A stretch of 64,000 nucleotides of DNA, from NCBI GenBank assembly GCA_033439295.1, contig JAVTLE010000016.1, forward strand, positions 434,001 to 498,000, in the 5' to 3' direction. The notes beneath the pieces are model-generated. The model made no database searches. It saw only the letters and a program-made list of their open reading frames with translations, and was not told the DNA's origin. The first letter of the stretch is position 1. Every line of letters begins with the position of its first letter. The position numbers and the translations under genes are program-made. Of this stretch, positions 6,551 to 56,673 are shown in pieces. The DNA comes from Deuterostichococcus epilithicus (taxonomy: Eukaryota > Chlorophyta > Trebouxiophyceae > Prasiolales > Stichococcaceae).

Positions 6551-9500
6551 ATGGCTTCCACTCCTGTCACTGCACCGCAGGTCTGGCTGAAGCACGACCT
6601 GCGGCTCGATGATCACCCCGGGCTCGCGGCGGCGCTGGCGCGGCACTCGCGTCAGGGCGGCGGCGTCATTGCAGCTTTCGTCTTCGACCCGCAATACTAC
6701 GCGCACCTGCTGTCCACCCACAGCGGCGTCGAGGGTAATGCATGCTGATGCAAACACAATCCATAGTCCTGCATATGCGGTCTGGCTGCAAGAAGACACA
6801 TTCATTGTTACGTGGAGTGCAGTTGTGTGTCCGCCCGCAGCACAATGCACCACAAAGTATAACATAACACCTGGCTGGCACCTCAGCGCGTCGCGGCATG
6901 CGCAGGCCTGGTGCGGGCGGTGGCGGCGCTGGGGGACGCGATGCGAAGACTGAATGGTGACATGCTGGGCTGCGGCAACTCGCATTCCACCCTGGTCCGG
7001 GTGTCTCGCTGGACGCAGGCCTGGTGAGGGCAGTGGCGGCGCTGCGCGACGCGATGCGGCGGCTGGGCGGCGACCTGCTGCTGCGGCGGGGGCCGCTCGC
7101 GCCGGCGCTGCTGCAGCTGGTGGAAGAGGCGGCGGCGGCGCATGTCGTGACGGAGGAGGAGGTTGAGTACAGGCGAGCTGCTCAACCCTATGTCGTAAAC
7201 CCTGAAACCATCAAAGCCGGGTGCCATGGTGGAGGATTCGATGCTGTGGGTGTGGCACCCTGCGCGGGCCAGCCCCCGCGCGCACCGCAGCCTTGACCTT
7301 TTGCGGCGGCTGCCCGGCGCGTCCCATTGCAACTGCAGACGCGTCTCCGGCATGAAGCGCCGCCCTGCGCCAGGCCTGCAGCACTGGCGCCCGTCTAATT
7401 GGTGTGGACGCTGCACGCTCCGCTGCGGCCTGGGCTGGGCGGCGGCCAGGTTTCTGCAGCATGGCGGACGAATTGAACCTGGAGGGAGGCATGCCAGACA
7501 GGCGAACATGCTCGCCCGGCGCAACCCGCGCCACATGTGTGCGCTTCCTGAGAGTTGGTGCTGTCGGGGTCCGCAGGTGGCACAACGGTATTGAGCACAA
7601 GTCAGCGCTGCTGCGGGGGACTGTCGTACGCTTGGGAAAGTAAAAACAAGCGTGATTGACGAAAGGGGCACACGGCGGTGTCCTCTGTCAACACGGAGCC
7701 GCGTGCCGTGTGCACCTGCCATGAAAAACACCCGAGACATGTACATGTTGTGCCGCAGGTGGCACACGGCGATGTCCGCCGTGCAGGCGCAGCTCCCTGA
7801 GGGCATCGCTCTGGAGCGCTGGCGAGTGGACGGCTATGCAGACGAGCCCTACTGCGAGAACTTTCGGGGTGCGGTGCTCAAACCCGCCCAGGGTCTTTTG
7901 CAAGGCTGGGCTCGGGCTGGCCAGCGAGCAGCACCTGCATCCCGGTACATGGAAAGGCGCCGGAACCTCACGGCGCCGGCTGCGCAGCTGCCTGATGGCG
8001 GCAGCGCATGCGATGTGCCATTGCACGGAATCGGCTTGCCGATCGTCCTGCGGTCAGCAGTCGGCGCCCCATGCATCACACCATGCGCTGTTCCATGGCT
8101 GGCGCACTCCTGCAGCTGACCCCTCGCTCGGGGCTGCAGACTTCCGCAGGCGGCGCGGCGAGCGGCTGCCGCCACTGGATCCGCCCGGCCAGCTGCCAGC
8201 GCCGCCCGGCGGCCTCGACATGGGCTCGCTGCCGCTGGCGGCAGATTTCGCCGCCGAGGTCGCGAATGCCGCCGCCGCCGGGTGCGCTTCCAGCTTCCAC
8301 CCTGCGATGTTGGGCGGACGGAGTCTGTGTTCCCATCAGGCCGCTTAGACTGTCATTGGATCCAGGCTGTCGTCTCTGGCCCAGCCGGGCTTTCTGTGCA
8401 GCTGCCGTCCATGGTCGCGGGTGGATGTTGCACAGCCGGCACGCGGGCCCCTCTTCAGCCCAGCTGTGTCACCTCGGGCTGCAGCACTTGGTTCGCTGCA
8501 GTGTGATGAAGGGTTGTTGTGAGTCATGCAGGCGGTACCCGGGCTTTGCGGGTGCCGCCGGGGCGGCGCTGGAATCGCTGGAGGCCTGGCGCTTTGACAT
8601 CTCCGAGGCGCTGCTGGGCGGCGAGCCCGTCGTGCAGGAAGCCTTGGACGCCTACCTCAGGTACCGGCTGGGCCGTCCGAAAGGGTCTTGCAAAAGTGCC
8701 TGCAAGGCAAACACACTGTCCCTCGAGACAGCAGCAGTGTTTGCCCCTTGTTTCACGGCGTAAGGGCAATGACGACGCACCCTCCTCGTGTGTCTCGTGT
8801 CCCTCTGTCTTCCTCTCCGTCTGACCCTCATGTCTCAAGGACCCGCCTTTCGGAACGATCTTTGACGTCTCCCCGGCGAGGCAGCGATTGGATCACCACC
8901 CGGTTCCTGTGTGCGGCAGCTGCTCCAGCCCCGCGGCTGCTGCGGGAGCGCCGGGCATCGCCGGTGCCGTCGCGGCGGTCACGCTCGCGGCGGAGCTGCC
9001 GTCCTGCCCGGGCGGCTCCTTCCCGGCGGTCTTCGGCCAGTGGCTGGCGCTGGGGCTGCTGTCGCGGCGGCGGGTCGCTGCGCTGGCGAAGGCGGCCGCG
9101 CAGGTGGGAACACACGGCGTCACTCTCACTCACGAACAACCAGAGTGTCCGTGCCAAGTGTGCTGCCGCCTGCTGCTGATCGAAGATGGAAAGCTTGCAC
9201 GCGCTGACCCTAATTCGAATTCCACTTAGCGATGGTGCCGTGCGCCAGCTCCTCCAGCTTGCGGTCGAACAGCAGGCGGCAGCCCACCGACTTGTGTCGA
9301 TCATGCAGCAGTTCCAGCTCATGAGCCGTGTGCAGATTCATGGCGGCATGTGGCGCCTGCCGCAGCGACTGCAAATGCGCCAAGCACATCTGTGCTCATG
9401 TCCGACTGGCACTGAAGCCCAGCACCTGGCTCGCGCGGCCCTGGCCACCGTGCATTCGGCTGAGCCGCATGGCTCTGGCCCCGCAGAAGCAGCGCCGCGG

Positions 9501-12500
9501 CCAGCTGCTGCCGGCGCTGCAGCCGCTGCCGGTGGGCATTAGCGCGGCGCGGAAGTGGGCAGAAGCAGCAGACTTCCACTGGCACCTTGCCGCCACCGAC
9601 CGCATCAGGTGTGTGAGAGCCATCAGGTAGATTCAAAATCCTCTCCAGCGTTCGAGGCGGCTAGAATCTTGTTTGCAGTGGATGCCGCACACAGGCGCCC
9701 GCTTCCATACCTCCCGCCTGCTGGCACAGGCACACTGTGGACCGACATGTCTCAGGGACGAGACACGCGACCTTGTATGGAAATCCGCCAGCCATCCCGC
9801 CAGCAGGCTGCTGTCTGGCTCTCAGAACCTGCAGATGCGCTCGGACCAGGGCCTGCCACGGTGGCCTGCCGCGGCGCCGACGCTGATGCGGCGGCCCCAA
9901 CAGGGTGACCTGCGGCAGCAGAACCGAGCTCGCTGGGCCCAGCCGCAGGCCGCGACTCGTCCAAAGCCCTTGGCCCGCTGTGTGCTGCCGGCTGCCTGGC
10001 GAGGGGAACAGTCTCGCATCACGGACATGCAAACTGTGCAGGGGCCACAAGGACGGCGAGGGCGCAGCGGCACTGGCGCTGGCGCGGCGCCTGTGACCGA
10101 CCACTGCGCTGCGGGGGCGGCCTTTCAACCCAAACCCTGTATCCTACCAGTAAACCCTGTCACCTGCATCCGGCTCTAGTCATTCAAATTGCGTGCAGGG
10201 ACACGAAGACGGGGGAGGCGCCGCGGCACTGGCGCTGGCGCGGCGCCCTCGTGGACTACTACACGGCGGAGCCGGGGCCGCTCGGGCAGCAGGAAGCACC
10301 CCCGCGGCCCGACGCCCCGGCGGCGTTGCTGGTGCACGGCTTTGGGGCCTTTGGGGAGCAGTGGCGGGGGCAGGTCCGCGCGCTGACGAAGGCCGGCTAC
10401 GAGGTGCGTCACTGGGCCCTTGCGACGACGCTTCCAGACTGAAACTCCTGGTTTCCGTGCGGCCGGCGTTTTGCGGTGCTGCCGGTGCACGGTTCTGGCG
10501 CCTCTGGCGAGCAGTGGCACGGCAGGATCAGGTCCGGTCGATGCCAAGGGCGGCCCATGAGGTGCGGTTGAGCTTGTTCATGCCGGTATGCGCCGCGCGC
10601 AGCAAGGCATGGGCACAGGCTTGACGGTCCCCAAGCCGAGCAGCTTGGAGGGTCCGGCCATTCGCCCAGGCATCCAGGGCTCCCCACACCCCTCACGCAG
10701 CTCTCTTTGCAGCATCTGCAGTGAAGGCGCACAGACCGGGAAACCAAATTAGAGATTTGTATCAAACGGAAAATGAAACGCTTGCCGCCCCGCAGGTGTT
10801 TGCGCCCACTTTTCCCGGCTACGGCCGCTCCGAGAAGCCAGCGGTCACCTACTCGGCAGAGCTGTGGCGCGATTTTCTGCGGGACTTCGTCCTGGAGGTA
10901 GCGCGCAAACCCGTCGTCGTCGCCGGCAACTCCATCGGCGGCTACATCGGCGCAGCACTCGCCGCGGACTACCCCTCCCTGGTTGCAGGTGCGGTCTTGC
11001 TCCAGGGCTTCTGCACCAGACTTCAAAACTCTTTTCATGCAGCAACTCCACCGGAGGCTGCATTCGCACGGCGCTTGCGGCCACCTACTCCGGCCTGGCT
11101 GCGGCTGTGTGTAGCTTTTGAAGGTTTCTGTGCAAGGCGACTGTGACACCTGCTGGCAGCGCGTCATGCACAGGTAAATTTGCAGCCAGCGGGTCAAGCA
11201 CCCATACCGGTTGTGCTACTGGGCAGGCAAAACCCAGCGCCTTGTCCTGCCATCCCCGAGGCTGCTTTCGTCATGTGGCGTGCATCCTTCTCAGCCATAC
11301 CTGCCCGGGACTCCACGGCACTTCTCCCGCTTGCAGGCCTGGTGCTGCTGAACTCGGCGGGGCAGATACAGCCCGACTACGCGCCGCCAGCGGGCGGCAG
11401 CACAGATGTCACGCCTGCAGTGTCGCCGCCGCCGCGCCTGCTGGTGGAGGTGGGTTGGCCGTGCCCTCCAGTATCAGTCCGTCAAGTCAGTACAAATCAG
11501 TACAAACCCCAACATGCCAAATCCACATCGCGAGGTCAAGATGCAATGCATCACTGTTGCGATGACCCTGGAGCGGCCCATCGGAGGAACCTGGCGCCGT
11601 AGGGTTTTAGAAGGCAAACCCCTCCTGAGGCTGACCCCGGAAACCCCTCCGCGCCGCAGGGCCTGAGCCGGGGTCTGTTTCTGTTCCTGGAGCGGTCGAT
11701 CAGTTTCAACCTGGCGCGCCTATACCCGGGGGACCCGACCAACGCTGACGCCTGGCTGGCGGACGAAATCTACCGCGCCGCTTGTGATCCCGGCGCCCTG
11801 GGCGTCTTCCAGTGCGCAGCTTCTCTCGCCCGGTTCTCTGTGCTGAGACCCGCTTCTGCAGCCTGCGCCACAGGGGTTTCCATCCCACGGCTGCACTGCG
11901 CTCGCATCGATTGTGGTTTGTGGTCAGTCTCGTCTGGGCCATAGCCATGCGTGCATCTCGAGCCTCTCGATATCCCTGCAGTGCCAGGCCTTTCTCCTGA
12001 TAATGGCGCCCCCCACAGCCACACCTGGGGCCTCGCTGCTCGTGCACAGCTTCAGTTTGGCAGCCCTTTCCCGCAGCAGCAGCAGCAGCAGCAGCAGCAG
12101 GCCCTGAGGGGCGGCACAGGAAGTGAGTGTGCCTGGTGGGACCTGCCGCAGGAGCGTCTTCTACCTGCCGAAGCCGCGACCGCTCAGCTACCTGGTGGGT
12201 GACCTGTGGCGCGGCCCGACGCTGGTGCTGCAGGGTGCCCTCGACCCGCTCAACGACGCCAAAGGTGCCGCTTCGCAGCGCGCATCCGCCTTGCACACCG
12301 CACCCGTCGGTGGTGCCCTTCTGCGCCAGAGCAGGGCGCTGCCATCCGGGAAGCCAGTGACACCATTGCTGCACAGTGCAGTGGACACTGCAGGATGCGA
12401 GTGTGACATGCGGGTTCCGGGTGTTTGCAGCTCAGTCCTTGACCACTTTTTGCACCTGTGCGCAGGCCGGGCGGAGGCGCTGCGGCAGGCCTGCCCCAAC

Positions 12501-13485: not shown

Positions 13486-15685
13486 TCAGGAGGCGCGGCA
13501 GGGAGGGAAGTAGCCGCTGCCGATGTGGGCGCCGCGCACGATGGCGGACTGCACCTGCCGCTCGAAGACGCCGCGCTGCGCGACCAGCGCCTCCGCCGCC
13601 TCCTTGTTCAGCGGGTCGTCCGGGTTGGGGTCCTGCCAGCAGGAAGACAAATCCCTATTAGATGTGGGAAAACCTGAATGCCAGCAGCTCGAGACCGAAG
13701 TTTGGCAGAGTTTCGGCCGCCAGCGCCTCCTCTGCCTCGTTGGTCAGCAAGTCGTCCGGCTGCTGGTGTGGGGAAGTTGTAGGCAAAGCGGAGTGAACCC
13801 TGTGACAAAAGTTCCATTGACTTTATGGCAGGGAGACGAGGGTGGATGGAAACCAGGATGGTTTGGAGTCGAGGGTTAGGTGGCAGCCAGGAACAGGAGT
13901 TCAAGGCCAACACCCAAGGACAGAACACATGACATTGGGGAAGGAGTTCATGACTCAGGATGGAACAGAAAGCTGATGCCGTACACTACAGGTTTGATGG
14001 AGAGGCTTCCTGCCTCCCGCTTGGACCGCAGGTTGGGGTCTGGGATTTCATGAATATGCCAGGAACAAGATGTTGAGGCCGGACACCACGGATCTGAAAC
14101 CCAACACCGGATAGATTCTGGGCAGTGTGGATAGGGTGTAAGAGTTCAGATGGTGCCAAAAAAGGACCGCACCAGGAACAGGAAGTTGAGGCCGTACACC
14201 ACGGAGTTGATGCTCAGCACCGGCTTCCAGTCCTCCCGCAGGATGTTGAGGCAGATGTTGCCCTCCGTGTCGATGTTGGGGTGGTACACCTACACACGCA
14301 GGCGCCGGGGCCCCAGATGTCAGGTACGTTCGTTAGGCGGGTGTCACCCAAAACACCGCCGCCCATGGCGGAACGTCAAGGCGGTACGGGCTTGCGAGCG
14401 ACGTTCAGATGGCGGCATACCGAGCTGCATCCAGGTGCGCTGGTCGGCGTCTGATTGAAGGCTCTGCGGCAAGGGGCAAGGCTGCAACGCCTCGAGGGGC
14501 CCACCTTTGTAAGGCACTTGACCTTGGGGGCGTCGTGCGGGTAGCCTGTCGAGATGTTGAAGTCGAAGACAAAGGCGCCCCCCCTGCAGCGGCGCATGTC
14601 GGGGCCGTCAGATGCTGTGCGTGCGAGCAGTCCCCTGGATGCCAGACTCATGCAGGGTGCAGGGTTGCGCACGGTGCCACAGCAAGATATGCTTGGTGCT
14701 CAAAGCATAGGAGCCGGCAGCAGCACCCCACAGCAGCCCAGGCATGCACATGAGGTAGTAAGTCATGTCTGACACTATGGCCTTGCAGACCAGCAGGTTG
14801 GCTCATTTCGAAAGCTGCGCATGATGGGGGATATCTGGGCCACTCCAACACCTGCAGGCGACCCCGCACAGCAGCGGGCAGGCATGCCACGCGCCACTTG
14901 CCTGTAGATGCCCTCGTCAGGGCACATGGTGATCTGGAAGTGGAGCAGCTTGTCCTTGCCGTCCACAAAGGAGATGGTCGCCCCCCGCGGCAGGTTCAGC
15001 TCCGATATGTCTGCATGCAATGCGGCGCGCAGATCCATCCAGCAGCGGAGGCGGGAGAGCGTGCCATGGGCACTGCATGTTCTGTGGTACCCTGGAATGT
15101 GCCGTTGTCGAATGGGTTTCTGCTGCAAAGGATTCGAGTCTGCGTGCATGCATACGCATGATGCGGGTGCGTGCACGCTGTGCATACCTTTCTGCACTCT
15201 GAGCTCGCCCGCCGACTGCCGCACACCCTTGCCGTTGTTGGCCGCAGCGTCCTTCTTCTGCTTCTCCTGAGTCGGAACAACACGCAGCTGCTTGTCACCG
15301 CTGGATTGATGGCTTCTATCTGGTCCACCCGTATTTGCTGGGTGCGGCGCACGCGAAAGCTTTCGTGGCAGGCTCCCGGTTCATCGGTCGTGAGGACACA
15401 TTCGAGCTGCTGCTTCACCGGCTGATCTCAAAAGCTGGCAGCAGAAGCCGCTGCGGTCTCCCCCAGCGTGGCAAGCCCGGGTAGGAACGACCACGTGCTG
15501 AGCAAGCGGGTGGACCATTGCAGGCGAAAGCGGGCTGACAGGTCATGCTGTGAGCATGTACAGACGCAATGAATGACACTGCAGGCCATGCGGGAAGTTT
15601 GCTTGCAGAAGGCTCGACTAGGCGCGCAGGAACCGTGAAGCAGTTGTGCGTGGAAACGCACCTTGACTGAGAATAGCTTTATCAT
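13486..15685 (-). CDS. UBC12: NEDD8-conjugating enzyme E2 (UBC12)
   Basis: Accepts NEDD8/RUB1 from the AXR1-ECR1 E1 as a thioester and passes it to cullins. Exons 15685-15662, 15266-15188, 15010-14902, 14583-14505, 14289-14173, 13632-13486; all in phase, 184 aa, the usual family length. It starts MIKLFSVK, the E1-docking N-terminal extension that marks UBC12 among E2s. The UBC fold follows, with [33 protein letters not shown] carrying the catalytic Cys (about residue 110), and [14 protein letters not shown] near the C-terminus. Intron 3 is GC-AG with a consensus GCAAGT donor. Intron 5 (540 bp) is largely built of decayed copies of exons 5 and 6. The first exon codes for only eight residues. 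Confidence 0.96.
13710..13772 (-). repeat. Decayed copy of UBC12 exon 6 in intron 5
   Basis: On the plus strand CAGCGCCTCC, then GCCTCGTTGGTCAGCAAGTC, parallels 13586-13638 in the exon. The acceptor region is partly kept. Confidence 0.85.
13887..13910 (-). repeat. Short decayed copy of UBC12 exon 5 end
   Basis: CCAGGAACAGGAGTTCAAGG parallels the exon 5/donor junction at 14171-14194. Confidence 0.65.
13958..14036 (-). repeat. Decayed copy of UBC12 exon 5 in intron 5
   Basis: Runs parallel to about 14175-14250: GAACAG, GTACACTAC, TTGATG, GGCTTCC and CTCCCGC blocks keep order and spacing. Confidence 0.8.
14058..14120 (-). repeat. Second decayed copy of UBC12 exon 5
   Basis: GCCAGGAACAAGATGTTGAG and then GACACCACGGA, CAACACCGG parallel 14170-14233 in exon 5. 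It lies next to the true exon, with the same orientation. Confidence 0.85.
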
Positions 15686-20900: not shown

Positions 20901-23900
20901 CTCTTCCGTGCAGGGCTCGCAGCTGCACATGCAGGACTGCGGCAAGGCGCCGCCGGGCGAGCTGCCGCAGCCTACCTGGGCGCAGGCCCACAACATCACG
21001 CACGACCCCGCCCTCGGCGGCGCCGAAGGTGTTCCAATGGACCCCCCCTCCAGTTCCCCACCGACCCACGGCGGAGCTCCTGCCCGGCCCCGCCTGCTCT
21101 GCTCCTTGGGCATGCCCTGTGTACGGATCCAGCAGCAGTGCAAGGCGCCTTGGTCGAAACGGTTTCAGGCTGCAAGCCCAGCCGCATGCCACAAGGTGCT
21201 CACATCTGGCACAACCTAGTTGACCTCGGGCGCTGACCAGCTGCTGCTGGTCACCAGACGCTCTGCCCTTATGCGCAGGCGATTGGCCGGCAGGTGCGGC
21301 GTCCGCAGAGTGCAGCTGGGCAGACACTGTTCACATCTGCACACTGGCTTAAGACGACGTTCACTCTGTTCAGGCGGGCGTCCGTCGAGCGCGGCCTCCG
21401 CAAAGCGCAGCTGGGCTGACGAGTTCTACGACGATGACCCGCCACCGCTTCCGGCGATCGGCGACTTCCCCAGCCTGGGCGGCGGCGCCGGCGGCCCGGC
21501 GCCCGGCGGCGCCTGGCGCAACGCCAACGGCCTCAAAAACGCGAGTGAGGGCTCGCGCCTTGGTTGCCTCAAGGGTTTCTGGGACACTGCTTCAGAGAAG
21601 CGTCAACAGGAAGGGCCGGGGGTTACCATGCGATGTGATTTGCATGCGCAATTGCAGAGGTGGTCCGCGCCCCCATCGATGCTATCATTGCTGGCTCTGC
21701 TGACGTTTCTCTGCTTTCCGTGGTGCATCAGTGGGCACCGATCAACACTGCGCGTGTACTCTGATCAACGAACTGTCGGAGGAGGGCTGCCAGCACGTTC
21801 TGGACAGCAGATGTTCCGTCATCTCCAGCTCTGGGGCGGCGGCTCTGCCACGGCTGCACTCTGCCAGGGCAACCCCTTCCACGCGGGGGTTTCGTGCAGG
21901 GCTCGTGTAGGGACTCGCTCAGCGGACGGGGCGCCTGCTTTGCAACCTCGGTTCCCACAATCTCGTTTCCGGCACCGCCCAATGCGCCAATCGCCGCCTG
22001 AGGGCCTCGATGTGGATCCCGTCCGCGCGGCAGCGAGTCCCGGGGGCCTGGACGCACGGCCGGCCGCGCCGCAGCGGCGGCCCCCGCCGTCGCCCGAGGA
22101 GGTGCTTCGGGAGGAGCGACTGGCGCAGCTGCGGGTGCCCTCCGACGATGCGCCTGATGCTGAGCGTCGCAAGCAGGTGCAATCTCAACACTAAATCCTG
22201 AACCCTGAAGCTCAACAATTGCGAGCTGGCCGGACTGCAAGATCGTCTGTTGGACTTTTGGAAGCCGCCATGCCGTGCCACCCTGTGATGCCGCCCCGCA
22301 ATGTCCAGCAGCAGAGCCCTCTGCTCGTACCGTGAAGAACGGCAGTGACAAGAGCCGTGCAGCGGGCGACACGCATGGCTGGTGTGCCAGACGGGACCGC
22401 ATAGCTCGCTGCTTCGCTGTCGACTCTTGCACCTCCAAACCCCGAAACCCATTCCCGATACAATCTCACGATATTCACCGACCGCAGGTAACGGCCATGC
22501 GCAGCTTCGAGGGGGAGGAGACGATCCGCGGGCGGCGCGTCAACGTGCTGGGGGGCCTGGAGCTGCACAAGAACCTACTGTCCCCCGCGGAGCAGGATAA
22601 CATGATAGAGCACATCCGCTCCTGGGTGGCTGCGGTGCGCCTCCCTGCCGCCTATGCACGGATGATGTTCCCTTGGGTGGTGGTGGCACTTCGCCACCCT
22701 GCCGCCTGTGATCGACGATGTTTTCCTGGGTGGCGGCCGTCGCCAGAGTGCCCGGCCTCCGTGTTGCATCACTGCACGCTGGAGCACGAGCTTGCGTGCA
22801 GTGATGCGACACGGCGGCCGGGCACTCTGGCGAGCTCGTGCTCCAGCGTGCTCAAGTGCGCCGCCGGATGCCATGCGCCGCTGGATTTCCGCAGGATACT
22901 GGCTGCGCGGGGCTGGCAGGCGCACCACACTGGCGCACATAACACACAAACAGCGTACGCAGTCGACAGTGAAGTCGCCAAACCCTCAAGCAAGCCAGAC
23001 TCTGTTTTGTTTCTTGATTTTCTCACCATCTGTCTCACGGCGGTGCCGCAGGGGCGGAGGGGCGAGCTGCGGGGGCGAACCTTCAGCGCCCCTCGCAAAT
23101 GGATGCCGGGCAAGGGCCGCGTCACGGTGCAGTACGGCTGCTGCTACAACTACGCCACTGACCAGCAGGGCCGCCCCAAGGGTGCGATTCACTTTTTTGG
23201 TTTATGCACTCGTTCCCCTGGTCGCTGCTGGCAGTGGGCTTTGGAATTTTTTGCAGCGCCCCTTGGCAGGGAGTGCACGGTGCATCACCTGCTGGGTTGT
23301 CTAGCTAAAGCTGCCGACACTGTGAGGCAAAAGATGCGGAGCCGGTGCCGGGCCGCGTTGGCAGCCTGCATCTGGGAAGTGGAACGGCCACACTTTCCTG
23401 TGATGGACTGGCGGAGCTTCATCAGCCGTCCAAGGTCGCAGCATCCAGCGTCCTGCAGCAGGCGAGGAGAACTGTCGACCGCACGCTCATCTCACCGGCT
23501 CCAACCCAATGCGCACATCCCCGTCCGCCCAGACACGAGGTTGAGGACCGTCGTCTCGCAGGCATCATTGCGGAGGAGGTGGTGGAGCCGCTGCCGCCGA
23601 TCCTCAAGGCGCTGTGCAAGCGGCTGGTGCGCTGGCGCGTCCTGCCGCCCGACCGCGAGCCCGACACCGCCATCGTCAACGTGTACGACACCGGTGCGGC
23701 CCGCTGCTCCCTGCTTTCGCAGCCTTCATGCGCATGTGCAGGTGATGCAGCAGCCGTTGCGCTTGAACTATACACCAGGAAGGAAGCGTTTTGATGATTT
23801 GTGGGTAAGGGCAGCATGGATTTCCTCACATGGATGAGAGCCCAGCTTCTAGGCCCTGGCAGATCACACTCGCAAACCATCAAAGATATTCCGGCAAACA

Positions 23901-30655: not shown

Positions 30656-31422
30656 AGCGGCGCCGTGGCGTTGACGGACCCAATGACAGTTTGTCTTTCA
30701 GCAAACGTGTACACAAGTCTTGTCATTTTTGGGAGCATGGCCAAGTGCTCAGTCGCATCCCAGGAGAGTACTTCACGCGCTTAGCATGAGACTTTTTGAC
30801 TGGATTGTTCCTGCGAACGTGCACAAGCGTGTACAAACTGCAACATGTGGAACGAACAAAGTCCAGGTCCGCATCGATTTTCAAGGTCCCCTCCACTCTT
30901 CAGGACCGCAATGTGCAATGCCGTCAAGCCGGCACATGGGCCAGCGAATCTCCTCTGCCGCTCCCCCCATTGCTACCGCTGCATGCCCAGGCAGCTTTTT
31001 TCGCCGTCCCTGTTTTGCAGCCGACACGGCCACCCAGTCCCAGGCCTCAGGCTCCCCGGCGCAGCAGCTGGCGCCAGCGCCGCAGCTGCTGGCGCCAGCT
31101 GCCGGTGGGCGACAACCGCTCAGGCCTCTGGAGACCGCCAAGCGCCTGCCGGGTGACCGCCTTGTGATACTGTTGCTGCAGCACCGCCGCCCTCACACAC
31201 TAGCCGCCCCTGCCTCTTGACAGCGCACGGCGCAGCACTGCCGCAAGTCCTGCCACTGCAACGCCACCGCCGTCATCGAGCCACTGCCGTTGCCGCTGCC
31301 GCCGCCGCCGCCGCCTTGGACCTCGGGCGGGCGCCTGCCGCACCAGCTGCACCAGTGGCCAGGCGCAGCCCCAGGGCAGCGTCAGACCCGCGCTGCCGAG
31401 GCGCCGCCGTCCTACCTTCGGC
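30656..31422. other. Convergent 3' intergenic region
   Basis: Between the ROMO1-like stop and the D-amino-acid oxidase stop. A GCAGCTGGCGCCAG motif is repeated with its complement near 31060-31102, forming a small hairpin. No exon seen. Confidence 0.5.
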
Positions 31423-35793: not shown

Positions 35794-38700
35794 ATGCGTT
35801 ACGGTGCAGCGGTACTCGCGATCGTCGCAGTGATAGTTGCCGTGGCAGACGCTGGAGAATGCAGACAGGATTCATTTTCAGCTTCGCCGCTTTTGCAGCA
35901 GCATCACAGACGACGCCTGACGGCGTTCACCGTGGAGGCGGTGGGTGGCCCGGTCAGCCAGAATTGCAGCGCAGCGCCGTGGCGGGTGCGGCACCAATTA
36001 GACCAAAAGGAAGCAAATATGTTCTTCTATCGTTGCTGGCAGCCTCGATCCGCTTTCGCACACGGTGATGGGACGCACGGACCGGACCGGCGGAGCGGCT
36101 CGGTGTCACCGCCTTCGATGCGGCGATGAGCTTGGCGAAATGGATTTGCTCAGCTTCGCACTGCCTTACTCAGGGCTCACCCATGGGTTCATTCGCACGG
36201 GGCCGAGAAGTCGGCGCCGTGGCGTGCACATCTCGAGCAGGGTTCTGCACGGCCAACCTTGAATGAAAAAGCGTTTCTGCAAGTCACATTTCCAGCTGCA
36301 TGCTTGCAGGGCAGTCTGAGATCAGTGTTGCGCTCTGAGATGTTGTGACTACTGAGTCTCGGCAGACACTCAATGCTCGGTAACAGGCAACGTGCATGCT
36401 CTGGCCCCGATATCAAATCCTGTTGTTGCATCACCTCTTAGAACATCCCGATCCATTAGGAACGCTCTCAGCATACAGCTGATACTTAGCGAGCCGCGCA
36501 CGGTGGCCAGTGACAGCCTGCAGCAGCTGGCAGGGCGCTGCGCGATCCATGCGCGCTCTTCAGTTCTGCGCAGCAATGTAGCTCTGTTGACCATGCCAGG
36601 ACTTCGGTGTCATCTTGAAGCCGACGCCCAATGCGGCCTTTCGGCCGGAGAAGATCGCATATTACAAGGAAAGGGTGCTGCCGCGGCTGTATGGCTTTGC
36701 CGCGGTGCTGGCGCTGGCGCTCGTACTGCTGGTCTTCTGGATCGCATGGTGCGTCAGAACGAGATGCTAAGTGGCGCAGTATTCATCACTGGATCATAGT
36801 GGAAGCTGCAATGCAGTTTGCTGCTCATGGATATGATGGTGCCGACGTCGCTGCATCTGCAGTGCAGGGCGTTGCCACACATGCAACACTATCCGAGCCT
36901 GCATCGAGACCTTGATAGGAGGAGATGCCGCTCATGACCGACCGGTTTCGCATGCATTCTCGCAGGCGGGTGCTGCGCTGCTGCTGCCGGTGCTGCTGCC
37001 ACTGGTGCTGCATGCGCGTCTCGCCGGTGAGTCACTGCGGCACACAACGGCATCAGCACATCACAGCATCTGCACATTCGAGCGACATCTGCTCTCAAGT
37101 CTGCCTGCCTGCTCTGCAGCGCCTTCGGACCATATTGGCACCTGCAAGTAGCACCACCTGCACCTGGAATAGCACCTGCAAAGTAGCCGCGCTGCATCAC
37201 CTGCGGACAGCCGTGGCAGCTGTAAATGGTCGTGCTGCAGCAGCGAGCCCTCATTGCAGCGTCGCAGCCCTTGCCTGCCAGAGCTGCGGTGCTGCCCCTC
37301 TCAAATGCACCAACACGATTGTGCAGGATCCGCTTGCGACGCTACGCGGCGGCGGCATGGTGGCCGCCAAGGTGCTCGTCTGCGTCTTTGGCGCGACGGT
37401 GCTGGCGTTGTGCGCCTGGGGCATGACGCGCACGGACCCCGGCATTGTGGACGGCGCTTTTGGTGTGGTGCTGCAAGTCAGGGTGAGTACGATACAGGAT
37501 TCCTGTACCCCTTCGAATGCACCCTGACGATGCGCAAGCGTCGTGTTGCCAATTTGCGGAATCAGCAGGCAGTTATCATCCTGGCGTGCTTCCCAATCTG
37601 AGTCCAGTCACCGCGCACCAGGATGCAGCTCGTGGCCTGGACGTACCTCCTGGTCAGCGTAAATTCAGATCGCTGTGAATGTGCTTCCGTATTATATGTG
37701 ACGAGGCTGCTTGACGAGTCGGACGGCGCGGAGTCGAATGCGGCCACCACTATGGTACAATCAGCAGCATTTAATTGAGCTGGCATTCCTGCACAGACGT
37801 ATATGGCGAGGCTGCTGGACGAGGCGGACGGCGCGGTGTCGGATGCGGCCACCATCACGGTGCAGCTGGCGCGGGTCGACAATATATTGGACACTGACGT
37901 CAACTATACCGACATCACCGCCCAGATCGAGGTGGGGCATCGGACAACCCAGCCTCTGAGCTGAGCCTCTGCCTGCGAGGGCGACTGTGAATTCGGGCAA
38001 CAGGCGCGGCATGGGCGGAAGAAAATCAGGGATGCGAGAGCGGCGGCGGTGATCCGGCAGGCGGCGCAAAGCAGGGTTGAGGAGGGAGCCATCTAGGAGG
38101 CGCTTGGGGTGCTCGGTCGAGCTTCGGTCGACCCATGACGCTGCGTGACCTTGCTCGCCAAGTCGTCGTTCAGTCATCGCCAGGCCGGCAGTCCCGGCGC
38201 TGTCCATGACGAGATGCGCCCAAGAGGCAAACCCCGAACATGCAGGAAACTGTTCCCTTGGTTTCATGACGGTCTTTCCTGCTGCCTGCAGTGCCTGGCG
38301 CCATGGCTGGACGGCCTGATTGACCCAGCACAGCTCAAGCAGGAGATCGTGGACCTGGGCGGCACGCTCAGCGGCACCCTGGCACCAGCGCTGGCGGCGG
38401 TGGCCAACGACACGGGCAGCCTCGCGGTACGGTCGCAATATCGAGACACAGTCTTGGCACGTCAGGGTCAATCGCACACGCTGGCCGGCACCCTGGCGCC
38501 GGCGCTGGCGGCCGTGGCAAACAATATCCGCAGCTAGCAGTGTGATCACGCTTTTGAGAACCTGCATCAACCTGGGATGCAATGTGCGCACTGGCCGGCA
38601 GCCTGGCGCTGGCGCAGGCAGCCGCGGCTGACCACACGCGCAGCCTCGCTCGATGTGTTCTCCCATATGTATTCGAGGATCAGCGCTTCGAGCTTGACTA

Positions 38701-41700: not shown

Positions 41701-44700
41701 CTGGCCGTGCGAGGCTGTGGCACATCGGGCCGACCGATCATCCGGCATCACCTTCGACTACAAGATGGCACTTCAGCCAGGCCCTGCATGTGTCAGGCTG
41801 ACCACCTGCCTCTCTGGGGCTGAGATGCTGCTGCATGTCATCCTCATGCGCAGGGCCTGGACAAGGTGAGGACACAGGTGGACCAAACTATCGAGGAGGT
41901 GAAGGACAAGATGCTGCATGCACGCGCCGACACCGTGGGGCGTGTCAACAAGTACTCCAACAAGTACCGCCCAAAGGCCGACGAGTACAACAAGTGGTGC
42001 GTCGGCTGCGCTGCCATGATTGTGTGGTATAGTACAAGACGTGGTGCAGTCTTCGTCTCGTCCAGCTCGCTGGGATTGTCGGTGTGATGGGATTGATGCA
42101 TGTGCATGCCAGCAGCCTGCTCGGCGCTGGCTGGCAGGAAGCACAGGCATCAGCACCGCAGAAGGCGACCATCGCATGCAAGCCGAATGGGCGCCCGGCC
42201 GGCACAGCTGCCTTGATGCATTGTCGTTGTCTGCTGTTGCACACCAGCACAGCAACCCTGGCGCCCAGCACAATTCTGAGGCCATGCACAGCCAGACACG
42301 TCCAAAATTCGACTTCAACTCCCTCTGCAACAGGCGGGTGGACGGCATGTTCGGCTTCTACGCGCTGGTCATGGCGGCGGTGCTGGCGGCGGTTGTCGCC
42401 GTGCTCATCGACTGCCAGTGGCTGGCGTCGTTTGCGACTGGCGTGCTGCTGGTGCTGGTCGTCATTCACGCGCTGCTGGGTGTGGCCGGAGCCGCCATCC
42501 TGGAGGTCGGCAGCGACGGGTGTGCCTCCGCTCGGAACAAGGGCTTCATCCGCATGATCATTGTCAGGCGTCACAATGCCGGCACAGGCAACTGCATAGT
42601 GGAGCTTGTTCGCACTGGGTCCGAGGGGTACTTCACAGGTGCATAGCTCCAGTCCGCAGGGGCACACGCGCATGTCGCTTGGACGGGGAACCGCTGGCCG
42701 GCCGCTGACGCCGCCTCCAGGGGGCACGCCTGCTCTTTCAGCTCGCCGTATCTGACACCTGCCCTGGCGAGCCAATGACGCGTTGAAGCTCCTCTCGAGT
42801 AGGTTTTCTACTGGCAGCTCAAACGCCATTCGACGCTTCATCTCTGTCTTACATACGGCTGCAGGTGCCAGAACCTGGAGGGCCAGATCCGGCTGCGGCT
42901 GGCAGAGAACATCAAGGACCGCGCCACCCTGGACCAGTTCATGCCGCTGGTGAACTATTACCTCGACGGCGCGGGCGGCAGCCTGATAGCTGTCGTGCAC
43001 ACCGCCTTCAACATCGACATCCTGAAGCTGCTGAACGACCTGCACAAGACGCGGGACGACCTGCTGGATGTGAGTGACCCCTCACCTTATCTAAACAGCA
43101 GACGCTCGCCGTCATAATCGCAGACAGTAGTGAGAAACAAATCGAGTGCTTGTGAAGGCGGCCTCTGCCGTGCTGAACAAGGGGTCCCATCGCCAATGGC
43201 TGACGGAAGCTTCAGCAGAGGGCTCACCGAGCTGCGGAGACCAAGCACTGGCAGCATCCAGACGCGTCAGCTCTGCTTCCTCCTTCCAGGCAGCAGCTGC
43301 CAGCGCAGTCTGCGCCCTCGAGCTGTGTCAATGAGCCAAGCGGGCAGTACAAACTGCATTAGCTTTATTTATCAAGTACCCGTAGCTGCACCTCGTGGCG
43401 GCGTCTGGCTGGTCCGGGCGCCAAACTCCTTCCTCCTTCCCCTTCACGGTGCGCATGGCGAGCAACCGTGACTCAAAACCCTCGTGTGCGCAGGACGTGG
43501 CGGCGGGGTATACCCTGCGCGCCGCGCCGCTGTCCGTCGTTGCCGCGGTGGACGTCATCGCCAACCTGCTGGAGGCGCGCGTGCACACCGCCATCGGCCT
43601 GCTGTCCTACCAACAGGTGTGTGGACCTGGTATCATTCACACCCAACGACGCTCCGTGTCACTGTACGTCACTGCCATCCTGGCGTTGCTGGAGAGTGGC
43701 CGTTGGATGGTCGGCCCCCCGATCACCAGCGTGCCGGAGGCCTTCCTGCATACTCCCGTCGACCTGCTCGTCGTACCAAGAGGTGGGGGCGCAAACCACA
43801 GCAGATGCTCCGCAAGGGTCACGCTGCGCTGCCGGCCTTGTTGGGGACAGGCCGACAGCGTTTGGCAGTGGCCGGTGCGGGCTCAGGTCACCGCCGCGGC
43901 TGCAGGAATGCACCAAGGCACCAGACTCGCCGACACGTCCAGCGAGCGCCTCAAACAGAGAACAGCGGCGCCGGCAGCCAGCGGCTCGCTGCTGCCTCGA
44001 CGCGTCATCGGCGGCCCTCTCCCTCCGGGATTCACTCCTGGACTCCTTCTGATACGTGTTGACATGTCAACCCGCAGGCGCACCCGCTGTACGTCAGCAC
44101 CAAAGGCTTCCTGTGCTGCCGCGCCCTCAACCTGATCGGCGACCTGTGGTTCGCGGTGTGGCTGGGCGCCATCGTCGCGGTGCCGCTGCTGCTGTGCCTC
44201 TTCCACTATGTCGCCCGCCTGGACCGGCTGCCGCCCCGAGCGTGAGGCCCCTCGATGTGCTCCTCAGCCATCTGTAGCGAGAGCTGGAGCGCCGGATCCC
44301 AACCTGCGTCCTGTCGTGTATGGACTGAGCTCGCCTTGCACATGGCGCGGCTTGTGGACCATCCTGCCAACCTGCAGTACAAAGATCATTGCTGCTGCTG
44401 AGCTCGTGCGCAGGTCGACGTTGAACCTGCGCGATGCCAACGAAGAGGCCGCCGCCAAGGTCCATCTACTGACGGTCTACAAGGCGTGATGGGCACAGGT
44501 GCTGCGGCTGCGGGCGGAGAAGGCGCCGCGAGTTCGAGCGCGGCCCTGGCGCGGAGCTGCCGCTGCTGCCGCTCGGCGGACGCAAGGGACACAAGGCCGG
44601 AGGCCCAAATGGCGCCATCGTCAGCGGCTGGCCGGAGACGCTGCCCGTCACGCCGCTGGGCAGCAAGAAGTGAGTGTGCCGGCGCTCCGCTGCAGTTGCC

Positions 44701-49800: not shown

Positions 49801-51424
49801 TGCAGACAGCAACCGCAGCTCGCACCTGGACGACATGGGCGTCAAGTACTGCGGCGATTTCGACCAGTTCCTGGGCTGCTGTGATGTGGTGCGCCGCCGC
49901 AGCACAACGATCGGTTCCCCACATAAGAGTGTTTGTGCGACTCTGAGACATTCTGGTAGGTGAATCATGGACGTGCAACGGCAAAGCCCGGCGGCTGCAG
50001 CCAGGGCGAGGAACGACCTCACAGCATGCGCTCTGTGGCCGCTTGCTGCTGACACCAGAATTCGACATTCAACACATACACAACTCCAAGCTTGGCAAGG
50101 AAATGAACCTGCAGTGTTGAAACTCTCGAGTGCCTGCCGTGCTGCGGCAGCACTGCTGCCTGCTTGGCTCACTACCCTGTCATCTCCTGCAGCGACATTC
50201 TTGGGGAATCGCGCCGCAGTGTGCTTTGTGCCCCCTGATGTGCCCAGATTGCAGTCCAGCCTCGGCATCGCTGCACTGCCCTCGCTCCCGCACGTCGGCT
50301 GGCTGCCGAGCAGCGGGTCTCTGCACCACTGTCACCATCGAACGATGACACGCCACCCTCGATGGATCTGGACTACAGGTGCTGGTGAACGTGCCACTGT
50401 CGGACAAGACGCGCGGCATGTTCAACAAGGAGACCATCGGCAAGATGAAGCAAGGGGCGGTTCTGGTGCGCTACTTTCGAACATCTCCCGTCTATAAGTT
50501 GTCTCGTCAGATAAATTTAGCCAGCAGGCAGCACTGCGACTGCTGCGCATCTCAACTTTGCACGGCGTGCTGTGGCACCGGACATGTGCAGCAAGTGCTT
50601 TCTTTCCTAGCAATGGGTAGTGACTGCAAGCAGGTGAACGACGCGCGCGGCGCCATCTGCAACACGGACGCAGTCGTTGAGGCCCTCAAGTCCGGTCACC
50701 TCAAGGGTGCGTGACTCAAACTTTTTAAACATCATCCAACCGCTGAGAGGAGGTGTTCACTGGGATATTCGGATCTGCATCATGAATTGGGACTGGCAGT
50801 GGCAAGGTGCGTGAACGAAAAGTCTAAAAGATGTACTCAAGACGATCTGTCTGGAAGGTCCAATTAGAATATACCAACTGTCGTGCTGTCCTGACTCAAC
50901 CTCAGCTAGTGACGACGCTTCAAGTGTAGGGTACGGCGGCGACACGTGGCCGGAGGAGCCACCCCAGGCCAACCACGTGTGGCGCACCATGCCCCGCAAT
51001 GCCATGACGCCGCACATGGCCGGCCTCACCATTGACGCCCAGGTGCAGAACATGCGACATGCTTTGATGCTTATTCTGCGCTATACCTCCTCCTCTTAAG
51101 CCATGCCCTCTACATAACTGCACTCTGCGCAAGCAAAAGCCCACCATCCCCCGTAATTGACGGTGGCTTGCCTTGATGATGAGGGACTGCCACTTTATTG
51201 CTGGTAGAACGCATGCTGCACCTCAGCAGATGCTCCACACGAATCGTCACCAGACCGATCCTGCTGACTCTCGTCTCTGTCTGTGTCTCTCTCGGCCATC
51301 CGCGCAGGAGCGCTACTCGGAGGCGATTCGCATGGTGCTGTCCCGCTTCATCACCAAGGAGGGGCTGCCCAAGGAACACCGCTTCCTGGTGCGTGAGGGC
51401 AAGTTTGAGCAGCCCGCCGAGTAG
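46816..51424 (+). CDS. Formate dehydrogenase paralogue 1, divergent active site
   Basis: NAD-dependent formate dehydrogenase family (D-2-hydroxyacid dehydrogenase fold). Exons 46816-46842, 46987-47067, 47361-47532, 47763-47806, 47972-47996, 48109-48166, 48357-48415, 48711-48782, 48950-49023, 49309-49399, 49806-49888, 50379-50465, 50634-50706, 50930-51042, 51308-51424; 391 aa, in phase. Visible: CVENALGLTDWTRSHGA, GTVGAGKVG (Rossmann loop), VYHDSNRSS (NAD-selecting Asp), [20 protein letters not shown] (Arg kept), GDTW, TPHMAG (His kept). Lost against plant FDH: the Ile of TAGIGSDH (here NLRGGSEH), the Asn of GSN (here GPY) and the Gln of PQPAP (here PEEPPQ). Formate oxidation is therefore doubtful. 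Introns 1 and 2 are GC-AG. Tandem with FDH2, same length. ATG 46816 is chosen because FDH2 begins with the matching short exon. Confidence 0.88.
49493..49610. repeat. Minisatellite, about 30 bp x 4, in FDH1 intron
   Basis: Units built on CTGCAGAGGCTGCAGCC followed by a variable 8-12 bp link. Lies in the intron after the exon ending at 49399. Confidence 0.85.
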
Positions 51425-52141: not shown

Positions 52142-55100
52142 ATGGCTTCATCCATCACAGTGAAGGCCAAGGTCAGCCTATGGCCGTATGGCCGCAGTCC
52201 CGAGGCAGCCGCTGATGAATGCAGTGAGGCAGCTCGAGCAGTGCGAGGTCTCGAGCCCTGAGCTAGCTTTCTGAGGGACACGGGACTTGTTTGAGACGAG
52301 GTCCCTTGGTCGTTTGCATGGATCTGTGTGTGCAGGCAAGCCGTGGCAACTGAGTATAAAGCGTAGGTCTCATCTCAAAGGCAGATGTTGCTAAACCTGC
52401 AGGCGGCAGCGGAGCAGGTCAGACAGAAAGCCACGGATGCGGTGCAGTTCGTCTCCCCGGGCTATTGCAGCGTCGCGGACAATCAGGCACGCCGTCGCAA
52501 CCCAATTTTCTTCGTTTTTCGTGAAACAAAGTTGATGAGTGGAGCGACGATGCGTATTTGTGCCGTCGCCCCGGGGGGCTGCGCCTTCCTGCAGATAGCA
52601 TACGCAGGCACGCAGTTAGGCGAACTTATAATGCTGTCGTGCTTTGACAGAGTCAGTCTATTCTTTCTAGCGCCGCACGCTCGCACTTGAATAGAAGGCT
52701 GTACAGCGCTTGCCATGTGCGCTTGCAGATCCACGGCGGAGACAAGCTGTTTGTGCTGGCGGTGCTGCCGCGGGGCGGCACCGCCGCCAAGAACCCACAG
52801 TGCGACATTTGTTCTGCTTCTGGCACTGTGGCAACCATGTCATGCAGCAGTCGGCACATGCACCGTGCTGAACTAGAGGTCGGTCAATAGAGAGTTGCCG
52901 CCGTCCGGACTACCGCTATGACAGCGTGAACGAGACACGCGACGTTGCAGGTACAACAGCCTGATCGGCGGTTCGGCTTGCATCAAACATATGTGACGCT
53001 GTGCACGCAGGTACCTCAACTGTGTGGAGCACGCGCTGGGCCTGGGTGAGTACTTTTTGAATATCTTGAAATATTCAGAAGCCACCTGACACATAAAACA
53101 TATGCTCGTTATTGCAATCAATACATGTCATGTTTCCTCAAGACATCGGGCTGCCGGATGATTGTGTACAGGCGACTGGGCCAAGCAGCATGGCGCGACA
53201 CTGTTCGCGACCAACGACAAGGATCGCCCAAACAGCCGTGCGACTCTGCTGCACCCGCTCCATTTCTGGCCCCTGGGGTCTTAGCAGTAACCATGCTTGA
53301 GCGGAAGGCTGAATTGCATATCCAGGTATGCGCAGGCGGCACTGCTGCTGGTCACTCTCTATCTGGCCGATGGGCCGACACGAGTCGTGCTCGTGCTAGT
53401 GGAATTTTTTTGCATCCTTATTAGAAGCGTCTGTCCCAGCTCGGGTGGCAATAAACTCTGATATCTCATGCATTTCGCTCTGCAGCCCTTCCACCCGGCA
53501 TACGTGACCCGTGAGAGCACTGCTCGGCTCCTCCTCTGCTGCAAATTCCTCGCAACTTTGCATATGACTGGCTATCATGCGGCCTCAAGCTCACAGAAGC
53601 ACTGCCATCATTTCCGCTCGTTTTCCTGCGCACTGAGCGACCACCAGATCGACCGGTGCTGCTACTGTCCGGCGCATCAACCAACAAGGTTTCAAGTGCG
53701 TGCTGCTGCACCAGGCGAGCGCATGGAGAAGGCCAAGAAGCTGAAGCTCATCATCACCGCCGGCGTCGGCAGGTGGGCAGGGTGGCAGAGTACGTGCCTG
53801 TCTGTAGCGGCTGTTGTGATGTGATGGTCATGATCAGGGCAGGTCACGAGGCTCGCCATGGGAAGCTTGCTGTCTCCGCAATATATAACCAAAATATGTC
53901 AGTGGCCAGTCAGGTCTGGTGATTCGACAACCCGAACACGAGCAATAACGTATTGTTGGTGATGGAAACATTGGCGCTTTGCGCGTGCAGCGACCACATC
54001 GACCTGCATGCCGCCGCGGACCACAACCTCACCGTCGTTGAGATCACGGGCAAGAAGGCCTGCTCAGCACTACCCGGACACATGCCGCGTCGTGTGGCGA
54101 GGCATCTGCGTGCACACAAACAGACTCACGGCGTTAGTCCCTGCTGGCCTTGTGCGTAGTGCTTTTCAGCTTGTATTGGCATGGCCGCTGAATGATGAGC
54201 GTCGCTGCTGCACCAGGCAGCAACACCGACAGCGTCGCGGAGGACGAGATCATGCGCGTCCTCGTCATACTGCGCAACTTCATCCAGGGTGCGCTATAGG
54301 AGGCACATTCGTTTGCACATGCACCATCGATTGTTGTCCTGCGAGCTGCGAACTTTTGGACCACAGGCCCGGTCCACCGCAGCCATATCTGCATGCAGCG
54401 CTCGTTTCAGCAGATTGAGACATGATGTCATCGGCCAAGTTGAAAAATGCGACAAGCATTGACAGCCTGCTGCTGAGCAACTCTGTTTAACCACTTGCTG
54501 CGCTGGAACTTGCGCCCAGGAAGACGAACCTTTAATGTTGCAGTTGACTCAGTTTCTGGAGTTCCTTCTCTCCTCCTCGCTCACGCAGGCCACGACCAGG
54601 CTCGGAAGGGAGAGTGGGATGTGGCGGCGGCCACCGCGGATGCCTACGACCTCAAAAACAAGGTGTGCACTCCCAGAAACCATTAATGTGTATGCATGCA
54701 GATAAATTAATGTGCATCAGCACCTCATCTGCCTATGTCATGCACTAGGAGTACGGCATGATTGCGGACCCAAAATGCATGCTGCGGCAGTCGATCGGGC
54801 ATGCAACGGCGTGGCGTGCTGTGGTGTGGCCAGGTCATTGGCACTGTCGGCGCCGGACACATCGGCCTGGAGTTCATGAGCCGCCTGCAGAAGGCAAGTC
54901 TCGACCTCCTGCTGGCAGCTGCTTCAGGATGGCACATTTTGCTGCATGTCAGACGCTCCTGGTGGTGATACTAACATCCGTTCTCATCCATTGCTCATCG
55001 TCGAATCGAGTCGACAGCTTTTCAGCCGCAAGCAGCAGCTTGTGCACTACCCAATCCACTCGGGCTAAGGCGGATGCATCATAGAGGCATTCGCGCGGCA

Positions 55101-56673
55101 CATAAGTACTGCAAAACATCGCTGCAGGGCTGGAATGCTTAGGCCCTCGTGCGCAAGTGTCGCTGCAGGGCTGGGATGCAAAGAATCTCGTGTACTATGC
55201 CCGACACCAGAAGCCAAAGATCGAAGAGCTGGGCGTCAAGTTCGTCGGCAACTTCGATGAAATCCTGTCGCAGTGCGATGTGGTGAGCTGATATGTCTCA
55301 TCATGATGGGTTGTCGTCATGTCGTGTCGAGCTGGCTTTGGGATCAGCACCTTGTTGACTGAGCCTTGCCAGACTTGCCGTCACTCTGGCGACCTGTGCA
55401 GCATCTCACCACCGGCATGGATGTCAACGGCTGGTCTGCTGCCCGTCAAGCCTGCGGCGTGTATGCTGACTTTGCCGGCATGGCACATGAACCATCATTG
55501 CATCCGATGGAGGCTACAGCACACCAGTTTGAACGAGGAAATGGTGCACATTACTAGACTAGACGACCTTGCAGGTGGTGGTGAACGTGCCGCTGTCGGA
55601 CAAGACGCGCGGCATGTTCAACGGCGAGAGCATCAAGCAGATGAAGAAGGGGGCGGTGCTGGTGCGCGATCCTGCACGCCGGTCGTCTGCGCTGCTGCCT
55701 GTCACCCATCTGACATGCCGTGACCTGCTGCCGGTTGAACCACGCATGGCACTGGCAAGTCAGGAGGGCCGACCCCAGCGACAACTGCCACTCTCTCACC
55801 ATTTCAGGCTGTAGCGATGCACACCCGCACTTTCCTAATGACAAGTGGGTGCCATTCCCCTGCCGCAGGTGAACTGCGCGCGCGGCGCCATTTGCGACAC
55901 CGACGCCGTGGTGAAGGCCTGCGAGAGCGGCCACCTCAAGGGTGCGTAGTCATGGGTCCTCCCCCTGCAAAACCCTCTATTGATGTGCAGCTCGTTGCTC
56001 GGGACGGATTCCACACATTTCCATGACACTCCTGGCTGCACTCTCCTGTCCACGACACCCAGCACCCTTCTGAGTCAGCGGCAATGCTGCTGCTGTCAAC
56101 GGCCATCGGGGCTTCGTTGCGCGCGTGCCCTGCCAGTTGTCGCTCCTGCCGAGGCTCCTGCTGCTGGTTGAAACCGACTGCAAGCCTCTGGCGCAGGCTA
56201 CGGCGGCGACGTGTGGCCGCGCCAGCCGGCACCGCCAGACCACCCGTGGCGCTACATGCCGCGCAATGCGATGACGCCACACATGGCGGGCCTGACCATC
56301 GACGCCCAGGTGCAGGTCATTCGCATCTCGTCCTGATTTCGACCCTTCATCCGGCTGTGTCATGTGTGAGCTGCGCCCTTGAATCGTTATGTTGCTCAAG
56401 CCACACCTTAGCGGCTTCTGCAGCTTTGGGTTGCTGTCAGGCGTCGCCGTGCCTGTCGCATGTATGAACGATTAAGCCGGAAGGAAACGTCCTCACCAGC
56501 CGCCGCAACACATGACAGAAAGCCCAATACCATGCTTGATCAACCTCCTGACGCCGCAGCACCGCTATGCCGCCGGCACGCGCCTGAGCCTGAGCCGCTG
56601 GGTGACTCGCGAAGCGCTGCCGGAGGAGTATTACATCGTACGTGAGGGCAAGCTGGCTGAGGCCTACACCTGA
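52142..56673 (+). CDS. FDH: Formate dehydrogenase paralogue 2
   Basis: Oxidises formate to CO2 with reduction of a nicotinamide cofactor; plant FDH is mitochondrial. Exons 52142-52171, 52403-52486, 52729-52799, 53011-53045, 53172-53237, 53285-53325, 53486-53510, 53715-53772, 53991-54049, 54217-54288, 54589-54662, 54834-54893, 55169-55282, 55575-55661, 55869-55941, 56197-56309, 56560-56673; 391 aa, in phase. Catalytic set largely kept: TAGVGSDHIDL (Ile to Val), [11 protein letters not shown] (Asn), NCARGAI (Arg), [15 protein letters not shown] (Asp, Gln), TPHMAG (His; the usual SGTT is AGLT). The Rossmann loop is GTVGAGHIG, but the NAD-selecting Asp of YHDR is Ala in YYARH, so NADP use is possible. 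Exon 6 (53285-53325) diverges most. GC donors at introns 2, 9 and 12. No clear transit peptide. Confidence 0.92.
55118..55157 (+). repeat. Decayed copy of FDH2 exon 13 start
   Basis: TCGCTGCAGGGCTGGAATGC lies 40 bp before TCGCTGCAGGGCTGGGATGC, the true acceptor and exon start. The first copy runs into a TAG. Confidence 0.9.

What the first reader, a model, noticed from the sequence alone, without database searches (positions are those of the whole stretch)
6898..55157. Introns across the window carry decayed copies of the neighbouring exon
In at least four unrelated genes (fusion gene, UBC12, prominin-like, FDH2), introns hold partial, mutated, same-strand copies of the exon just before or after them, often including its splice site. 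About 15 clear cases in 64 kb is too many for chance. It suggests constant local tandem duplication of exon edges in this genome, followed by decay, as a source of intron sequence. I know of no named process that describes this pattern in green algae.
Basis: seen in the sequence. Interest (0 to 1): 0.85.

Follow-up and report, generated by a model that had tools for sequence, protein, structure and literature searches.

The report
Old tandem duplications across exon edges
Several introns in this alga-like stretch of DNA contain worn-out copies of the edge of the neighbouring exon, left by old duplications of roughly 100 bases that lengthened the introns; the process is of a familiar kind, but the density, the narrow size range and the similar age of the copies are unusual.

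Summary
Local same-strand repeat pairs number 25 at score 100 or more, against 2.2 expected and 4 inverted. I count 16 decayed copies at 13 exon edges: 7 acceptors, 5 donors and 1 stop codon whose copy lies in the 3'UTR. First copies sit 41-166 bp from their exon; 10 of 16 steps are 94-116 bp. Homology runs past the splice site into the intron (permutation P 0.0002-0.0024; without the stop-codon case 0.0004-0.06), and the three best cases abut or nearly so. So these are genomic tandem duplications crossing an exon edge: the edge nearest the exon body stayed in use and the other copy decayed. By offset they make up 16-78% of nine introns. 'Constant' duplication is not supported: copies are similarly diverged (65-85% identity) and none is young, which suggests a past episode. 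The bias to exon edges may be survivorship, because the exon preserves its copy; my simulations cannot settle it. In the nine introns measured no offset equals intron length, so this is intron growth, not the known intron gain by tandem duplication. No genome or algal relative was available; nothing genome-wide was tested.

The parts
6883..6983 (+). decayed copy of acceptor side of exon 7019-7172 (photolyase part), offset 113, splice AG kept
   Evidence: gap to second copy 12 nt
7657..7705 (+). copy of acceptor side of exon 7760-7868, offset 94; weak further copy at 7571-7614
   Evidence: only p=0.04
10024..10121 (+). copy of acceptor side of hydrolase exon 10199-10403, offset 155
   Evidence: p=0.19 on masked sequence
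10473..10566 (+). copy of donor side of the same exon, offset 153-158, donor GT kept
11040..11116 (+). copy of donor side of hydrolase exon ending 10988, offset 116
13682..13789 (-). copy of acceptor side of UBC12 exon 13486-13631, offset 136
14059..14112 (-). UBC12 donor-side copy c1 of exon 14173-14287, offset 113
13962..14020 (-). UBC12 donor-side copy c2
13883..13920 (-). UBC12 donor-side copy c3 (short)
21256..21325 (+). copy of acceptor side of exon 21374-21544 (ALKBH-like gene), offset 95, AG kept
31298..31398 (-). copy of the last coding bases, stop codon (31423) and 3'UTR start of the DAO gene, offset 100, abutting
37695..37759 (+). copy of acceptor side of exon 37797-37936 (ab initio gene, no Pfam hit), offset 105
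38477..38549 (+). donor-side copy c1 of exon ending about 38425, offset 114
38570..38649 (+). donor-side copy c2 of the same exon
43722..43789 (+). copy of donor side of exon ending about 43616 (ab initio model 43455-46023), offset 165, GT kept
55119..55149 (+). copy of acceptor side of FDH2 exon 55169-55283, offset 41, AG kept

Best explanation
Short tandem duplications of genomic DNA, most often 94-116 bp, occurred across exon boundaries (acceptor, donor, and once a stop codon). In each case the boundary nearest the exon body stayed in use, so the protein was unchanged; the second copy, now inside the intron or 3'UTR, was free of constraint and decayed. Repeated events at one edge made short arrays (UBC12, the prominin-like gene). 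This lengthened existing introns. Shown here: the copies, their orientation, adjacency, inclusion of intron sequence, one-sided decay and similar divergence. Inferred: that splicing ignores the copies, that they date from one past episode, and that the duplications arose by break repair with fill-in synthesis or by slipped synthesis.
For: Excess of local direct over distant and inverted repeats. Own-flank similarity above shuffled exons and other genes' exons for a minority of flanks. The unit is duplicated whole in the best cases: gaps between copies of 1 nt (DAO), 10 nt (FDH2), 12 nt (photolyase). Intron bases beyond the splice consensus match their own copy better than permuted copies (P 0.0024, 0.0020, 0.0002 for 20, 30, 40 nt; without DAO and with hand-corrected edges 0.045, 0.060, 0.0004), so the source is DNA, not spliced RNA. 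Decay at all codon positions (76/312, 61/307, 84/315) with an excess at fourfold sites (61/199 against 137/619 at positions 1+2, P=0.017): the copy drifts freely while the exon changes mostly at silent sites. All 22 indels are of lengths not divisible by three. Splice dinucleotides at the exact offset are kept in 6 of 15 copies (about 9 expected from 23% divergence, my arithmetic), so no sign of upkeep. UBC12 and FDH2 hand-spliced without the copies give near full-length Pfam domains, and the hand-spliced hydrolase aligns over residues 3-293 to a cyanobacterial relative. The stop-codon case shows splicing is not required.
Against: No copy is young, though a continuing neutral process should leave some. 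Under a uniform-location model with 20-22.5% divergence, more intron-only and intergenic pairs should be seen than were. The narrow length range is unexplained. Two edges (7759, 10199) are weak in the shuffle test. Gene models for the prominin-like gene are ab initio only. Nine other first copies leave 26-64 nt between the aligned parts and the 43616 case about 98 nt, so full duplication of the unit is inferred there. Edges were hand-adjusted.
Confidence: 0.83

Rival explanations
1. Intron gain by tandem genomic duplication: an AGGT-bearing exon segment is duplicated and the stretch between the two AGGT sites becomes a new intron.
For: Known mechanism (PMC3443670 and PMC2891723, passages read); FDH2 has an intron before GWDAKN that FDH1 lacks.
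Against: It predicts copy offset equal to intron length and copies of the far exon at each intron end. In the nine introns measured (255-749 bp) the first-copy offsets are 41-158 bp, and copies lie beside their own exon. The edges at 37797, 43616 and 31423 have no measured intron.
Confidence: 0.06
2. Survivorship only: ordinary tandem duplications fell anywhere in non-coding DNA, and only those overlapping an exon remain recognisable because the exon copy is preserved. This is a sub-case of the best explanation rather than a different event.
For: At 28% divergence with 4% indels the simulated edge fraction is 0.84-0.92, matching the data; a non-edge pair exists at 61016/61112.
Against: At 20-22.5% divergence with 2% indels, near the measured value, non-edge pairs should be more common than seen (P 0.018-0.024 for introns only, taking 11 of 12 pairs as edges; 0.0006-0.0009 with intergenic DNA, taking 12 of 14, the counts are mine). 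At 25% with 3% indels P is 0.16 and 0.027.
Confidence: 0.55
3. Copies inserted from spliced RNA or cDNA.
For: Copies are of exon sequence and same-sense.
Against: Copies extend into intron and 3'UTR sequence next to the edge and lie beside their source.
Confidence: 0.03
4. Functional alternative or decoy exons under selection.
For: Some copies keep splice dinucleotides (6 of 15); my gene finder took three copies as exons.
Against: 22 indels, none divisible by three; mismatches nearly even over codon positions; splice sites lost at least as often as drift predicts.
Confidence: 0.03
5. The copies were made by an error-prone process and were diverged from the start.
For: Homogeneous divergence (P=0.42 for 16 copies), no young copies, only slight third-position excess.
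Against: Fourfold sites are more diverged than positions 1+2 (P=0.017), so time has passed; I know of no process that makes about 20% errors in such copies (recalled, not searched).
Confidence: 0.04

Closest known systems
Small tandem duplications from break repair (CST/Pol alpha-primase fill-in with NHEJ; PMC8355091, passages read; the rice study of Vaughn and Bennetzen seen only as a reference there)
   Same: Direct, adjacent copies; that paper speaks of insertions under 100 bp.
   Different: Here old and decayed, concentrated at 94-116 bp and at exon edges; junction microhomology can no longer be read.
Intron gain by tandem genomic duplication (PMC3443670 and PMC2891723, passages; PMC4974935, search listing with start of abstract)
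   Same: Tandem duplication of exon sequence with a splice site; one copy becomes intronic.
   Different: Here the intron already existed and grew; offset is not the intron length in the nine introns measured.
Introner elements (recalled, no call)
   Same: A source of intron sequence in some algae.
   Different: The only distant same-strand matches within this window join the two FDH paralogs.
Minisatellite or tandem-exon arrays (recalled)
   Same: Two or three units at steps of about 72-114 bp in UBC12 and the prominin-like gene.
   Different: Arrays start at an exon edge; copies are partial exons.

Membership tests
Small genomic tandem duplications | direct orientation, copies adjacent, unit length equals offset | tested here: met
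   25 direct against 4 inverted; gaps 1, 10 and 12 nt in the three best cases; 26-64 nt in nine other first copies and about 98 nt in one, where decay is assumed
Small genomic tandem duplications | junction microhomology or fill-in signature | not testable with these tools
   junctions too decayed
Intron gain by tandem genomic duplication | intron length equals duplication length | tested here: not met
   nine introns of 255-749 bp with first-copy offsets 41-158
Intron gain by tandem genomic duplication | intron absent in relatives | not testable with these tools
   no algal relative found; FDH1/FDH2 intron positions differ
Introners | near-identical introns repeated over many genes | tested here: not met
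   window self-comparison, (64 kb only)
Introners | target-site duplications at intron ends | not tested
   none
Tandem alternative exons | whole exon copied, frame and both splice sites intact | tested here: not met
   partial copies with frameshifting indels and lost sites

The most novel reading that the evidence does not exclude
The introns are a fossil record of a past mutator episode in this lineage that made tandem duplications of a preferred length of about 105 bp, preferentially at exon edges, and so lengthened many introns within a short time.
Probability: 0.27. Interest if true: 0.72.

Novelty: new variant of a known kind. Interest (0 to 1): 0.47.

Why it matters
Where intron sequence comes from is poorly known. 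If this holds genome-wide, exon-edge duplication is a measurable source of intron growth, and because the exon keeps the original, the event stays datable long after both halves of an intron-only duplication would be unrecognisable. It also warns that ab initio gene finders take such copies for exons, as mine did at 6906-6956, 10042-10086 and 21279-21293.

Tried and rejected
Distant relatives: two viral-contig scans gave no relative; the genome-contig scan gave 310 relatives, of which 80 were kept and the titles listed are cyanobacterial, useful for checking exons but not introns. Rfam: 0 hits at gathering threshold; no tRNA. Two early gene-finder settings failed, one splicing nearly everything and one finding nothing. 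The models lost UBC12 and merged neighbouring genes, so the curated set (first used) mixes by hand.

Candidates not counted: 40332-40492 and 11554-11597 (both p=0.005), 7402-7470 and 42084-42171 (both p=0.015), aligned; 20798-20904 and 37035/37123. They are weaker or not placed at the edge, so my count may be low. Pairs in low-complexity exons at 18-20 kb were not counted. The minisatellite at 31-311 was masked before but not. The UBC12 acceptor case (37/105 mismatches, exon boundary then wrong) was dropped from the first homogeneity test (P=0.90), restored (15 copies, P=0.35) and joined by 43616 (16 copies, P=0.42). The offset list (11 of 16 at 94-116 bp) had included the non-edge pair 61016/61112 and left out the UBC12 c2-c3 step; the edge-only recount is 10 of 16.

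Literature: ten searches listed no paper on decayed exon-edge copies as intron sequence in green algae. I saw titles and abstract starts only, several lists were cut (for example 15 of 655), and the library holds open-licence papers only.

Full report
What was checked. The window is 64 kb of a eukaryote with about 62% G+C; no genome is held for it. I built gene models with a small hidden Markov gene finder, corrected them by hand and checked products against Pfam. Curated exons measure 69.1% G+C and introns 60.8%.

The repeats. blastn of the window against itself gives 19 same-strand pairs, 11 of them under 1 kb apart, and 4 opposite-strand pairs, all local; the other 8 same-strand pairs join two FDH paralogs. 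A diagonal scan with low-complexity sequence masked gives 25 direct local pairs at score 100 or more against 2.2 expected from distant offsets, and 4 inverted (Poisson P about 3e-18, although pairs of one array are not independent). The excess is largest at offsets 90-120 (11 against 0.1), with 4 at 25-60, 0 at 60-90, 1 at 120-150, 4 at 150-180 and 5 above 200. Listing these pairs, I assign 17 of 25 to exon-edge cases; the other 8 include short intron repeats, low-complexity exons and the pair at 61029. In 142 intron-flank comparisons, 9 have shuffle p<=0.006 (binomial P 2e-7) and 10 have rank <=0.02 against exons of other genes. Most flanks show nothing: own exon beats its own reverse complement in only 72 of 142.

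Anatomy. Sixteen copies lie at 13 edges: seven acceptors (7019, 7760, 10199, 13631, 21374, 37797, 55169), five donors (10403, 10988, 14173 with three copies, 38425 with two, 43616) and one stop codon (31423). They fall in seven of my gene models, or six if 37803-43117 and 43455-46023 are one gene. Acceptor copies lie upstream and donor copies downstream of the exon. The DAO stop-codon copy aligns over the whole 100-bp unit and abuts its source (gap 1 nt); photolyase and FDH2 are nearly abutting (12 and 10 nt); nine other first copies leave 26-64 nt between the aligned parts, and 43616 about 98 nt. Intron bases outside the splice consensus also match their own copy beyond permuted copies, more weakly without the DAO case. 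This points to duplication of genomic DNA across the boundary and against insertion of spliced RNA copies.

Decay. Over 15 copies, 221 of 934 aligned exon bases differ: 76/312, 61/307 and 84/315 at codon positions 1, 2 and 3. Fourfold sites differ more (61/199) than positions 1+2 (137/619; Fisher P=0.017). So most change is in the copy, and the exon has changed mainly at silent sites. The dinucleotide AG or GT is kept at the exact offset in 6 of 15 copies. UBC12 copies c1, c2 and c3 are each about 81% like the exon, while c1 and c2 share 38/55, as expected of independent decay; the two copies of the 38425 edge are closer to each other (45/58) than that, so one may derive from the other.

Age. 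All 16 copies are compatible with one divergence (chi2 15.5, df 15, P=0.42). None is under 15% diverged by my alignments (blastn trims one to 89% identity). Uniform ages give such a lack of young copies in 0.025% of 20,000 simulations of 15 copies. The simulation assumed a detection limit of 36% and its cut-off was set at the lowest observed divergence; local alignment also trims to the best core, which narrows the spread. Collapse of near-identical tandem copies in assembly could hide the very youngest, but hardly those of 5-14% divergence (inference). I therefore prefer a past episode to a constant process, with moderate confidence.

Place and length. Of 16 edge steps, 10 lie at 94-116 bp (P about 1e-5 under uniform 40-200, a post hoc window). 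Whether exon edges are preferred depends on the true divergence of unconstrained sequence: at 20-22.5% the seen edge share is too high for uniform placement, at 25% it is borderline, at 28% it is as expected. The measured divergence comes from trimmed local alignments and is likely an underestimate, so survivorship remains a good explanation.

Effect. By offset, duplicated units amount to 16-78% of nine introns, most in the UBC12 intron 13632-14172 (this counts the weak copy at 7571 and takes each offset as a full unit). Since offsets differ from intron lengths in these nine, existing introns grew; they were not created by these events. FDH2 has an intron where FDH1 has none, whose origin is open.

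What is known. Reviews treat tandem genomic duplication as a genuine route of intron gain (PMC3443670, passages; PMC2891723, passages), and small tandem duplications arise from break repair with fill-in synthesis (PMC8355091, passages). I file this as a variant: tandem duplication over exon edges causing intron growth. The mechanism of duplication itself is inferred.

Noticed in passing
47322-51053 and 52698-56336: Two tandem FDH-like paralogs (2-hydroxyacid dehydrogenase domains) with differing intron positions: FDH2 has an intron before GWDAKN that FDH1 lacks, FDH1 has one after LVYH that FDH2 lacks.
   Followed up: partly
6551-12644: Photolyase-type domain followed by an alpha/beta hydrolase that my gene finder joins into one gene (two); the hydrolase is about 40% identical to cyanobacterial proteins.
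   Followed up: partly
22740-22851, 31064-31102, 49516-49601: Local inverted repeats (near-palindromes) found by self-comparison.
   Followed up: no
47-279: Minisatellite with units of 48 and about 95 bp at the window start.
   Followed up: no
61016-61172: A 96-bp-offset direct pair (47/62) with no annotated exon edge nearby.
   Followed up: partly
49614-49718, 34192-34248, 4186-4255: Short tandem duplications of 29-35 bp in introns or unannotated sequence, one at 23/25 identity.
   Followed up: no
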